Shown one piece after another: positions 26,318 to 29,896 of a stretch of 64,000 bases of DNA (position 1 is its first letter; each line of letters begins with the position of its first letter). This stretch comes from Corynebacterium camporealensis (GTDB lineage Bacteria; Actinomycetota; Actinomycetes; Mycobacteriales; Mycobacteriaceae). Where the stretch lies: assembly GCF_000980815.1 (NCBI RefSeq), contig NZ_CP011311.1, forward strand, positions 1,503,815 through 1,567,814, written 5' to 3'. The notes beneath the pieces were generated by a model, which saw nothing but the letters and a program-made list of their open reading frames with translations, searched no databases and was not told where the DNA came from. The position numbers and the translations under genes are program-made.

Positions 26318-27709
26318 ATGTCAGATAACACCCCTCAGGTCGACGAGCACTACGACCTCATCATCATTGGCACCGGTTCCGGCAACTCCATTCCCTCCCC
26401 GGACTTTGACGACAAAAAGATCGCCATCGTGGAAAAGGGCCGCTTCGGTGGCACCTGCCTGAATGTCGGCTGCATTCCGACCAAGATGTACGTCTACGCC
26501 GCCGACGTTGCCCTGGCTGCTCGCGAGGCCGGTCGCCTAGGGCTGGACGCACAAGTCAACAGCGTCGACTGGGACTCGATTGTCGAGCGCGTCTTCCACA
26601 ACCGCATCGACCAGATCGCCGACGGTGGCGAGGCCTACCGCCGCGGCGACGAAACCCCAAACATTACTGTCTACGACCAGCACGCCCGCTTTATCGCACC
26701 GAAGACGCTGCAGATCGGCGACAGTGTTATCTCCGGCGAAGAAATCGTCATTGCCACCGGCTCCCGCCCACAGGTCCCGGAAGTCTTCAGCAACTCCGGC
26801 GTGCGCTTCTACACCAACGAAGACGTCATGCGCATGGATACCCAGCCGAAGAAGCTCATCGTCGTCGGCGGTGGCTTTATCGCCATGGAGTTCGCCCACG
26901 TCTTTGATGGCTTGGGAACTGAGGTCACCATCGTTCACCGCCGCGAGCAGCTCCTGCGCTTCCTTGACAAGGACGTTTCCGACCGCTTTACCGAACTAGC
27001 CAAAAAGCGCTTCCCCTTCGTCCAAGGTTCCACCGAGTCGGTGGAACAGACTGAAAGCGGAGGCGTCCGCCTCCACCTCGATAGCGGCGAAACCGTCGAA
27101 GCCGACGCCGTCCTCGTTGCCACCGGCCGCATCCCCAACGGCGACCAGATGGACCTCGACAAAGCTGGCGTGGAGATGCGCGAGGACGGCCGCGTGAAAG
27201 TCGACGAGTACGGCCACACCACCGCGGAAGGCGTCTGGGCACTCGGCGATGTCAGCTCGCCTTACATGCTCAAGCACGTTGCCAACGCCGAAACCCGTGC
27301 CGTACAGCACAACCTGCTGCACCCAGAGGACCTGCGCAGCATGCCGCTTGACAATGTCCCTTCGGCGATCTTTACCCACCCACAAATCGCCACTATTGGA
27401 TTGTCTGAACAACAAGCCCTCGACGCCGGTTTTGACATCACAGTAAAAATTCAGAATTACGGCGATGTCGCCTACGGCTGGGCGATGGAAGACACCACTG
27501 GCTTCGCCAAACTCGTCGCCGATAAGAAAACCGGCAAGCTTCTAGGTGCCCACATCATCGGCCCCGACGCCGCCACGGTCATCCATCCGCTGATTACAGC
27601 GATGTCTTATTCCCTGGACATGAGGGATTTTGCTCAACAACAATATTGGATCCATCCGGCGCTGCCAGAGTTGATCGAAAACGCCGTTTTGGGCCTGGAA
27701 TGGGATTAA
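26318..27709 (+). CDS. mtr: mycothione reductase
   Basis: Mtr is a flavoprotein disulfide reductase that uses NADPH to reduce mycothiol disulfide, the actinobacterial counterpart of glutathione reductase. The 463-residue product shows the FAD-binding DLIIIGTGSGNS (about 13-24) and the redox-active pair in GGTCLNVGCIPTKMY (about 46-60). It also shows an NADPH-binding motif IVVGGGFIAMEFAHV (about 187-201), a second FAD contact GVWALGDVSSPYMLKHVA (about 307-324), and the C-terminal interface YWIHPALPELIENAV carrying the catalytic His. AGAAAGG precedes the ATG. It is probably expressed alone or with the preceding hydrolase. The mycothiol context fits Corynebacteriales. Confidence 0.96.
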   Translation: MSDNTPQVDEHYDLIIIGTGSGNSIPSPDFDDKKIAIVEKGRFGGTCLNVGCIPTKMYVYAADVALAAREAGRLGLDAQVNSVDWDSIVERVFHNRIDQIADGGEAYRRGDETPNITVYDQHARFIAPKTLQIGDSVISGEEIVIATGSRPQVPEVFSNSGVRFYTNEDVMRMDTQPKKLIVVGGGFIAMEFAHVFDGLGTEVTIVHRREQLLRFLDKDVSDRFTELAKKRFPFVQGSTESVEQTESGGVRLHLDSGETVEADAVLVATGRIPNGDQMDLDKAGVEMREDGRVKVDEYGHTTAEGVWALGDVSSPYMLKHVANAETRAVQHNLLHPEDLRSMPLDNVPSAIFTHPQIATIGLSEQQALDAGFDITVKIQNYGDVAYGWAMEDTTGFAKLVADKKTGKLLGAHIIGPDAATVIHPLITAMSYSLDMRDFAQQQYWIHPALPELIENAVLGLEWD

Positions 27710-28049
27710 ATTCGACCGTTACGTGACAAACATCACAGGTTAGTCACACCAGTCACACGACAGTGTGTTGTGCCTAATAAACAGGTCGTTTTGCCTTTTA
27801 AGAAAATCTGACAAACACCTCGATCCAGGGGTATGTGCAGGCCATATTGCGCAAATCCCAAGATATCGGGGTGCATTGTCAGGATATCTTTACGAACTTG
27901 AGTACACACACCGGTACAAGCCAACTCCCGGCGGCCGTGTGCTGCGGAAGTTCCTAAGACTCACAGGCTTTCTGAGGGCCTTAAGGAAGTTCCCTTTGCC
28001 AGGTATCTCTCTCGAGACACTCACATACGATTACCAAAGGACTTTTGAC
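27710..28049 (+). other. 340-bp upstream region of the small exported-protein pair
   Basis: No gene is supported here, although the frame of the downstream gene stays open. It holds a GlxR-like site (27722-27737), CACAC-gaca-GTGTG (27754-27767), and two copies of GGAAGTTCC (27946-27954 and 27985-27993) whose flanks (CTAAG and CTTAAG) make a larger inverted repeat. Such a long regulated leader suggests tight or strong control of the exported proteins. Confidence 0.6.
27722..27737. promoter_or_regulatory. candidate GlxR (CRP-type) binding site
   Basis: Read on the minus strand, TGTGATGTTTGTCACG resembles the corynebacterial GlxR consensus TGTGANNTANNTCACA. The half-sites TGTGA and TCAC are spaced correctly, with one end base differing and T-T in place of the central TA. 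Confidence 0.4.
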
Positions 28050-28427
28050 ATGCGTATTCGCAATGCAGCCATCGTCGGCGCAACCGCTCTTGCAGTTGCT
28101 TTCGGCGGCACCACCGTTGCTACCGCTCAGGCCGAGCAGCCGGACTTCTCAGCTCCGAACCAGCCAACTGATGATCCAGCCAAGAAGGACGGCGGCACCC
28201 TGTCTTCCAAGATTGGTGCTCAGCTCGGCGCTGGCGAGGCTGCTAACGGCCAGGCCATCTTCGGCTCCTCCAAGACTGAGAAGGACGGCCAGGACACCTT
28301 CGCTGGCCAGCCGGCTTGGGCTAAGGTTCTCTACGCTCTGACCATCGGTGGCGGCCTGGGCGCTGTTGTCGGCGGCGTTATCGGCCCGGTCTACAACTTC
28401 ATCGTTCACGGCCCGCTGTCCAACTAA
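28050..28427 (+). CDS. small exported protein, unknown family
   Basis: The 125-residue product has a clear signal peptide (residues 1 to about 29, with AVAFGGTTVATAQA before the mature start). A hydrophilic middle (about 30-80, with GGTLSSKIGAQ) follows, and then a C-terminal hydrophobic segment YALTIGGGLGAVVGGVIGPV (about 95-114) before the end. Codon use is strongly biased (GCT, GGC, CTG, TCC, AAC), as in very abundant proteins. AAAGGA lies 8 nt before the ATG. A second, related gene follows 39 bp downstream. I do not recognise the family. A cell-envelope protein is likely from the signal peptide, and an outer-membrane (mycomembrane) protein is speculation. Confidence 0.75.
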   Translation: MRIRNAAIVGATALAVAFGGTTVATAQAEQPDFSAPNQPTDDPAKKDGGTLSSKIGAQLGAGEAANGQAIFGSSKTEKDGQDTFAGQPAWAKVLYALTIGGGLGAVVGGVIGPVYNFIVHGPLSN

Positions 28428-28442
28428 TCACCAGCTACTGGC

Positions 28443-28459
28443 TACTTTTCAGAAAAGTA
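28443..28459 (+). other. short inverted repeat between the two exported-protein genes
   Basis: TACTTTTC-a-GAAAAGTA occupies the place where a ribosome-binding site for the second gene would be expected, 8 nt before its ATG. No AGGAGG-like sequence is present, so folding could limit translation of the second gene. Confidence 0.45.
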
Positions 28460-28466
28460 AAACATC

Positions 28467-28868
28467 ATGCGTAACTTCCGCACTGCAGCAGTAGCTGCTT
28501 CCACCGCTGTCGCCGTTGCTTTCGGTGGCGCTGCCGCCGCTTCCGCTGAGGATGCTCCGGTCAAGGAGGAGAACCTGTCCTCCAACCTGTCCTCCGCTTT
28601 CGATAACTACAAGTAGCTGGACGGCGAATTCGAAACCCTGTCCTCCAAGTGGGGCGCAGCTACCGAGGCTGACCGCTAGGTCATCGGCGGCAACCTGCTC
28701 GGTGAGCGCACCCATGACGAGAGCAACCCGCTGTGGTCCAAGATCTGGCGCGATGGCACCTACGCTCTGCTGGGCACCGCTGCAGCTGGCGCTGTGATCG
28801 CTGCTTACAACTACGCTGTCTACACCGGCATCGTTCCGCAGCACATCCTGGACCCGATTTTCCGCTAA
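28467..28868 (+). pseudogene. second small exported protein, interrupted by two TAG codons
   Basis: Read straight through, this frame encodes 133 residues paralogous to the preceding gene: signal peptide with AVAFGGAAAASA, then ETLSSKWGA, then LWSKIW and a hydrophobic YALLGTAAAGAVIAAYNYAV segment near the C-terminus. Codons 50 (28614-28616) and 71 (28677-28679) are TAG. The second aligns with a CAG-encoded Gln in the neighbour (ANGQAIFG against ADR*VIGG), so a single C-to-T change explains it. Apart from these, frame, codon bias and terminal TAA are preserved. Either it is a very recent pseudogene, or the ambers are read through. TAG is used as a normal stop elsewhere in the window. Confidence 0.75.
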
Positions 28869-28905
28869 GGAAAACTAGGCTCTAAGTCTTTTTGCGAAGA
28901 CGCTC

Positions 28906-28943
28906 AAGCCGGTTGCTTCCCACTGGGAGGCAACCGGCTTTTT
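28906..28943 (+). terminator. rho-independent terminator after the exported-protein pair
   Basis: AAGCCGGTTGC pairs with GCAACCGGCTT (11 bp, with extra pairing in the loop) followed by TTT. Retention of this strong terminator fits an expressed two-gene unit. Confidence 0.9.
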
Positions 28944-28951
28944 GGTGCGTT

Positions 28952-28982
28952 AAAAGGGAGGGCACCAGTGCGGTGCCCTCCC
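28952..28982 (-). terminator. rho-independent terminator after map
   Basis: GGGAGGGCACC pairs perfectly with GGTGCCCTCCC (11 bp, 5-nt loop). On the minus strand TTTTAACG follows. Confidence 0.85.
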
Positions 28983-29020
28983 TTCATCTATCTGGTGCGC
29001 GTGTAATTGCGCGCTCCGCT

Positions 29021-29896
29021 TTACTGCTCGTCTGGCAGGGTGAGGATCTCGTTGCCGTCGTTGGTGATGACGATGGTGTGCTCGAACTGGGCGGTGAACT
29101 TGCCGTCGGTGTTTTGGACGGTCCAGTCGTCGTCCCAGATTTCGTAATCGAGGGAGCCGAGGTTGATCATCGGCTCGATGGTGAGAGTCATGCCAGGTTC
29201 CAGAACGTTGCGGTAGGTCGTGGAATCGTAGTGCAGGACGACCAAGCCGTTGTGGAAGGTGGGACCAACACCATGGCCGGTGAAGTCGCGGACGACGTTG
29301 TAGCCAAAGCGGTTGGCATAAGACTCAATCACGCGGCCGATGACGTTGATTTCGCGGCCGGGCTTGGCGGCCTTGATGCCGCGCATAGTTGCTTCCTTGG
29401 TGCGCTCCACCAGCAGGCGGTGTTCTTCGGAGACGTTGCCGGCTAAGAAGGTGGCATTCGTATCACCGTGGACGCCGTTTTTGTAGGCGGTAACGTCAAT
29501 GTTGACGATGTCTCCGTCCTCAATGACGGTGGTATCCGGGATGCCGTGGCAGATAATCTCGTTCAGCGAGATACAGCAGGACTTTGGATACCCCATGTAG
29601 CCCAGGGTGGATGGGTAAGCGCCGTGGTCGAGCATGTACTCGTGTGCAATGGCGTCGATCTCATCGGTGGTCTTGCCGGGCTCCACAGCGGCACCGGCGG
29701 CCTGCAGGGCGTTGGCTGCGATGCGGGAGGACTCACGCATGGCCTCAATAACTTCAGGGGTCTGCACGAAGGGCTCGCCTTGAGCTTCCTTCACGCTGTC
29801 CTTCCACGCGTATTCCGGGCGCGGGATGGAGTTAGGAACCTTGCGGATCGGAGTTGGCTTACCTGGTTGAAGTTTTCCTCGATTGCTCATGTTCAA
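29021..29896 (-). CDS. map: methionine aminopeptidase, type I
   Basis: MetAP removes the initiator Met from nascent proteins with small second residues. The 291-residue product has an N-terminal extension (residues 1-50, [16 protein letters not shown]) as in actinobacterial type Ic enzymes. The di-metal ligands are in [16 protein letters not shown] (two Asp, about 155-170), [10 protein letters not shown] (His, about 218-227), TIEPMI (Glu) and [10 protein letters not shown] (Glu, about 268-277). The TTG at 29896 is preferred because GGGAGG lies about 9 nt before it. An ATG two codons downstream has unsuitable spacing. The penicillin-binding protein gene lies 21 bp upstream. A strong terminator follows. 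Confidence 0.96.

What the first reader, a model, noticed from the sequence alone, without database searches (positions are those of the whole stretch)
28467..28868. Two in-frame amber codons in an otherwise intact, highly codon-biased exported-protein gene
Seen: codons 50 and 71 are TAG while the rest of the 133-codon frame keeps signal peptide, codon bias, C-terminal hydrophobic helix and final TAA. Codon 71 aligns with a CAG Gln in the adjacent paralogue (ANGQAIFG versus ADR*VIGG), so one C-to-T change explains it. Two independent CAG-to-TAG events without frameshifts or other decay are unusual. Explanations: very recent inactivation, amber suppression or read-through in this strain, deliberate base editing, or a sequence error. 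TAG ends normal genes here (nucleoside hydrolase, MATE gene, xerC, LapA gene), so reassignment is unlikely.
Basis: partly seen in the sequence, partly recalled or inferred. Interest (0 to 1): 0.75.

Follow-up and report, generated by a model that had tools for sequence, protein, structure and literature searches.

The report
Freshly silenced gene for exported protein
In the type strain of a sheep-milk bacterium, a gene for a small exported protein carries two stop signals and should make only a stub; another isolate of the species appears to have a copy cut short at a different place, while close copies in other public sequence data are whole, so this looks like recent loss of the gene rather than a special way of reading the code.

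Summary
In detail: the 133-codon frame at 28467-28868 has TAG at codons 50 and 71 and is otherwise intact. Genome length and tRNA count match Corynebacterium camporealensis DSM 44610, sequenced by Illumina at about 113-fold. The gene is the second of a pair of small exported-protein genes between mtr and map.

Read-through or reassignment is not supported: 51 of 51 tRNA genes found have ordinary anticodons, RF1 is intact, and TAG ends 11 of 42 homology-supported window genes. A second C. camporealensis protein record seems truncated at a different codon. Six near alleles (86-95% identical) are full length, and the window's only residues absent from all six are the two ambers.

Best reading: a recent strain-level null allele of a highly expressed envelope protein, probably one of several independent losses. 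Selection, for instance by phage, is plausible but untested.

The parts
28467..28868 (+). g2: 133-codon frame plus TAA, broken by two in-frame TAG codons; predicted product is a 49-residue stub
   Evidence: profile match of intact relatives with '2 TAG' inside
28614..28616 (+). codon 50, TAG (first premature stop)
28677..28679 (+). codon 71, TAG (second premature stop)
28467..28547 (+). signal-peptide-like first 27 codons (A-S-A before the apparent cleavage site)
   Evidence: seen by eye; no signal-peptide program was run
28572..28595 (+). perfect 12-base tandem repeat (two units, four residues each); the second isolate's protein lacks one unit
28602..28730 (+). central stretch (aa 46-88) that holds 15 of 19 columns variable among five intact 133-aa alleles, and both ambers
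28731..28826 (+). codons for the C-terminal hydrophobic helix (aa 89-120 in the low-confidence model of the intact relative P0001), lost by the truncation
   Evidence: mean pLDDT 61
28050..28427 (+). g1: intact paralogue, 125 aa, first gene of the pair
28907..28944 (+). palindrome followed by a T run downstream of g2, possible terminator
   Evidence: seen by eye; the consensus scan does not list it

Best explanation
g2 is a recent, strain-level null allele (a fresh pseudogene) of the second member of a conserved pair of small exported, probably envelope-anchored proteins. Translation should stop at codon 50 and give a 49-residue stub without the central segment and the C-terminal helix; the second amber lies in a gene already dead. 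Shown: the two stops, no suppressor tRNA found, intact RF1, full-length near alleles, and a shortened protein recorded for a second isolate. Inferred: that the protein sits in the mycomembrane, that loss recurs within the species, and that loss was favoured by selection (phage escape, life in the udder or in culture) rather than drift.
For: 51 of 51 tRNA genes found have ordinary anticodons, none CUA. RF1 over its cut-off, no stop inside. TAG ends 11 of 42 homology-supported window genes. Six near alleles, P0001-P0006, 86-95% identical, all full length; the window's only residues absent from all six are the ambers. P0241, named C. camporealensis, is 56 aa with a sense codon at position 50 and ends after the residue aligned to Ser60: a different truncation. 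P0242 is the 49-aa stub. Codon bias intact on both sides of the stops. Older losses of g2 in two other lineages, G035/G220 and G074/G240. Illumina at about 113-fold.
Against: Two nonsense changes and no other private residue is an odd outcome of plain decay. The DNA behind P0241 was not seen, so a contig end or annotation limit is not excluded. No expression or protein data for this strain. No other genome of the species is held as DNA.
Confidence: 0.85

Rival explanations
1. Amber read-through or suppression: the two TAG codons are translated at some level and a full-length protein is made.
For: The frame is otherwise undamaged and codon-biased; both ambers fall on columns where intact alleles vary, P 0.024; in-frame stops under purifying selection have been reported in bacteria (PMC7918605, abstract and first part of Results).
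Against: No CUA anticodon among 51 of 51 tRNA genes; RF1 intact; TAG is an ordinary terminal stop; RNA around the ambers folds no better than shuffles, z 0.31; none of the six near alleles has a stop at these codons and the second isolate ends elsewhere.
Confidence: 0.05
2. Sequencing or assembly error in the reference genome.
For: Only one genome of the species could be read as DNA here.
Against: MiSeq 2x250 at about 113-fold; two separate substitutions without indels; the 49-aa stub is recorded on two contigs, though the second may be a copy of the same record; no comparable stops in 264.5 kb of the genome.
Confidence: 0.04
3. The short product is functional: truncation turns an anchored envelope protein into a small secreted peptide, and this form is kept in some strains.
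For: The signal peptide and strong codon bias remain, and both short records of the species keep the N-terminal part unchanged apart from one repeat unit.
Against: The two stubs end at different places, no short form was seen among the six near alleles, and undamaged N-terminal sequence is also what recent loss predicts.
Confidence: 0.05

Closest known systems
[quoted passage not shown] 2021, PMC7918605; abstract and first part of Results read)
   Different: Here two ambers in one short gene and, apparently, another truncation in a second isolate; no conserved stop position that would speak for read-through.
C. glutamicum gene pair between mtr and map (cg2195 and its neighbour by recall; G178 locus L173)
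   Same: Same gene order mqo, hydrolase, mtr, two small exported genes, map, pbp; cg2195 is called a putative membrane protein with a strong promoter (PMC6303301, passage).
   Different: Both genes are open in G178; sequence identity to g1 is only 30-36%.
Small helical mycomembrane proteins ProtX and PorA/PorH, needed for infection by phage Cog (PMC9671496, outline and passages)
   Same: Small proteins; ProtX is predicted to be alpha-helical and PorA/PorH are encoded side by side; loss gives phage resistance there, which is the kind of pressure proposed here.
   Different: Other loci (cgp_2875, cgp_3008-3009); the tags 2195 and 2196 do not occur in that paper's main text (its supplements were not seen); the g2 profile matched two places in G178, of which the one listed lies in the mtr-map interval.

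Membership tests
Recent pseudogene / null allele | frame interrupted so that the full protein cannot be made by the standard code | tested here: met
   two in-frame TAG, no suppressor tRNA among 51 of 51, RF1 intact
Recent pseudogene / null allele | intact alleles in close relatives | tested here: met
Recent pseudogene / null allele | little further decay | tested here: met
   no private missense against six alleles; codon bias kept
Recent pseudogene / null allele | no full-length product in the cell | not testable with these tools
   no proteomic or ribosome data at hand
Stop-codon reassignment or natural amber suppression | tRNA that reads UAG | tested here: not met
   51 of 51 tRNA genes typed, none CUA
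Stop-codon reassignment or natural amber suppression | TAG rare or absent as terminal stop, or RF1 lost | tested here: not met
   TAG ends 11 of 42 window genes; RF1 intact
Programmed read-through | stop kept at the same place in relatives, or a structured element beside it | tested here: not met
   six near alleles have sense codons there, the second isolate ends elsewhere, fold z 0.31
Phage receptor of the ProtX/PorA kind | loss gives phage resistance or less adsorption | not testable with these tools
   no assay; locus tags 2195 and 2196 not in the main text of PMC9671496

The most novel reading that the evidence does not exclude
In C. camporealensis, g2 is a hypervariable surface protein under diversifying pressure, most likely from phages or host immunity, and null alleles that cut off the C-terminal helix arise again and again in isolates. 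The double amber is then a footprint of repeated, favoured inactivation combined with recombination among alleles, not of slow decay. Removing g2 would change phage adsorption or immune recognition.
Probability: 0.3. Interest if true: 0.6.

Novelty: new member of a known kind. Interest (0 to 1): 0.36.

Why it matters
If the related C. glutamicum gene is a guide (strong promoter; top transcript; the link between those gene names is recalled), the pair belongs to one of the most strongly transcribed loci in the genus, yet I found no stated function in the papers searched. Null alleles in isolates beside intact, centrally variable alleles would show that the second protein is dispensable in some settings and point to what acts on it. 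The case is also a caution: two in-frame ambers in a codon-biased frame look like a code oddity but are better explained by recent strain-level loss.

Tried and rejected
Suppressor tRNA and stop reassignment: rejected. Structured read-through element: the RNA around the ambers folds no better than shuffles, and the two Rfam matches in 27600-29100 were far below their cut-offs. Known domain families: no Pfam or NCBIfam match over cut-off for six proteins, namely g1, two pieces of g2 and three intact relatives. Solved structures: none for g2; for g1 only PS2 at E 0.14 over the N-terminal part, not taken as homology. Structure models: mean pLDDT 58 and 61, too low for a fold search, so none was run. 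Plasmid records: no match.

Genome control for other nonsense codons: the first try mixed in antisense shadow frames, filtered by bit score, discarded g2 itself and are not relied on. One search, which uses codon usage, recovers both g2 ambers, and only those pass 0.5 on both flanks. It looked at 364 kb of the genome (15 stretches of 20 kb and the window), not all of it; its 280 intervals may include some shadow frames, and 0.5 was chosen after seeing the scores. The stop count used 42 of the 47 intervals; I dropped five as shadow or doubtful frames. The codon-adaptation reference was the wrong pair of genes; one search replaces it with two genes taken as tsf and rpsB by recall.

Stops listed as '1 TAA' in G117, G172, G175, G176, G178 and G234 are terminal stops. 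Literature searches for the gene pair and for phage receptors gave promoter and transcript notes on cg2195 and NCgl1929 but no functional study of the pair; most hits were unrelated. In the CL31 phage paper (PMC8002715) only passages were seen. A cited paper on phage BFK20 receptors is not held and was not seen.

Full report
What is there. The frame at 28467-28868 reads 133 codons and a TAA, with TAG at codons 50 (28614-28616) and 71 (28677-28679). In this strain it should yield a 49-residue stub: a signal peptide (apparent cleavage after residue 27, by eye) and about 22 residues. After codon 50 the only in-frame ATG, GTG or TTG is at codon 110, leaving 24 residues. An intact paralogue, g1, lies just upstream (28050-28427). 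A palindrome with a T run follows g2 (by eye; the scan does not list it).

Where it comes from. The genome is one contig of 2,451,810 bases with 51 tRNA genes. [quoted passage not shown] A sequence error at two separate positions is therefore unlikely.

The family. A DNA search of 242 genus genomes (own genome included) found matches in 72; the best over the whole gene outside the own genome was 72% identical, so no second genome of the species is held. A protein profile matched 149 of 242 (not all rows are listed, and it also picks up g1-type genes). In G178 (3,309,401 bases, the length of C. glutamicum ATCC 13032 by recall) the order mqo, hydrolase, mtr, two small exported genes, map, pbp is the same, with one further open frame before map. 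Papers call cg2195 a putative membrane protein with a strong promoter (PMC6303301, passage) and NCgl1929 the highest transcript of C. glutamicum in one data set (PMC7268698, passage); that these two names are one gene, and the counterpart of this pair, is recalled and not shown by a call. Codon adaptation agrees with high expression: g1 0.74 and g2 0.75, 0.90 and 0.81 in its three parts, against 0.40-0.72 for seven neighbours. No Pfam or NCBIfam family reached its cut-off.

Is the code read differently? No sign of it. 51 of 51 tRNA genes found were typed and none has CUA. RF1 is over its cut-off with no stop inside. Of 42 homology-supported window genes, 28 end in TAA, 11 in TAG and 3 in TGA (five further intervals were dropped). 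The RNA around the ambers folds no better than shuffles (z 0.31).

Close relatives. With X at the two stops, the protein search gave 180 proteins (120 listed); the nearest are P0001-P0005 (133 aa, 94-95% identical) and P0006 (134 aa, 86%), all full length. These six clusters stand for 23 member sequences; four list a source code (lgn or ena), two list none, and none is named, so they may come from this species or a close sister.

A second truncated allele. A search with the first 70 residues, X at codon 50, returned two proteins: P0242, the 49-aa stub, recorded on two contigs of which the longest is 2,451,810 bases, and P0241, 56 aa, 'hypothetical protein [Corynebacterium camporealensis]', on a 236,528-base contig. 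P0241 has Gln at position 50, lacks one four-residue unit of a perfect 12-base tandem repeat (28572-28595), is otherwise identical, and ends after the residue that aligns to Ser60. So two isolates of the species seem to carry different truncations. The DNA behind P0241 was not available: a contig end is not excluded. Short open frames may also be under-called in databases, so the ratio of short to full alleles says little.

Pattern of change. Of 133 columns, 19 vary among the five 133-aa intact alleles, 15 of them in aa 46-88 (P 8.7e-6, stretch chosen after seeing the data), and both ambers fall on variable columns (P 0.024). The window's only residues absent from all six intact alleles are the two ambers; the six themselves have 2 to 12 private residues each. 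Nonsense makes up 29 of 875 nonsynonymous single-base steps, so 2 of 2 has P about 0.001; this assumes equal rates for all base changes and that the six alleles represent the source population. As a contrast, g1 of this strain has four private residues against four near alleles, all missense. The g1 alleles also differ by gaps in their central part, so variability is not special to g2.

Elsewhere in the genus. G035 and G220 share a g2 with a stop and a frameshift beside a g1 that is open. G074 and G240 share decay of both genes. Other stops listed proved terminal. These are at least two older losses.

Is the whole strain odd? In 364 kb of the genome (15 stretches of 20 kb and the window), 280 homology intervals covering 264.5 kb in coding-like frames gave only two stops with coding scores of 0.5 or more on both sides: the two g2 ambers. 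Earlier versions of this test failed to recover g2 and are not relied on.

Mechanism. Most likely the second protein of the pair has been lost in this strain recently; the first stop removes the central segment and the C-terminal helix (helix from a low-confidence model), and the second is carried in a dead gene. The lack of other private changes, together with a different truncation in another isolate, favours selection for loss over drift, but does not prove it. Small mycomembrane proteins of C. glutamicum (ProtX, PorA) are needed for infection by phage Cog (PMC9671496, outline and passages), so phage escape is a reasonable cause; nothing here tests it, and that paper's main text does not name tags 2195 or 2196.

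Verdict. A real and well-described observation; an ordinary kind of event (a fresh null allele) in an interesting gene. The read-through reading is not supported.

Noticed in passing
28050-28427: g1 of this strain has residues at aa 9, 41, 78 and 100 found in none of its four nearest alleles, at 9, 78 and 100 where those four agree: perhaps relaxed constraint after loss of g2.
   Followed up: partly
28050-28427 (profile A4): Weak match of the g1 profile to the N-terminal part of the S-layer protein PS2 (9hpn_A, E 0.14), probably signal-peptide likeness only.
   Followed up: no
28572-28595: Perfect 12-base tandem repeat in g2; the second isolate's protein P0241 lacks one unit, as slipped-strand loss would give.
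   Followed up: partly
L169, L170 (G074, G240); L171, L172 (G035, G220): Decayed copies of the pair in other lineages: both genes broken in G074/G240, only g2 broken in G035/G220.
   Followed up: partly
L018, L006, L009, L012, L017: Some relatives have a second g1-g2-like pair just downstream, so the locus grows by tandem duplication.
   Followed up: no
G000:C1:1387111-1387302 and 824173-824328: Two more places in the own genome match the family profiles over the N-terminal part only.
   Followed up: no
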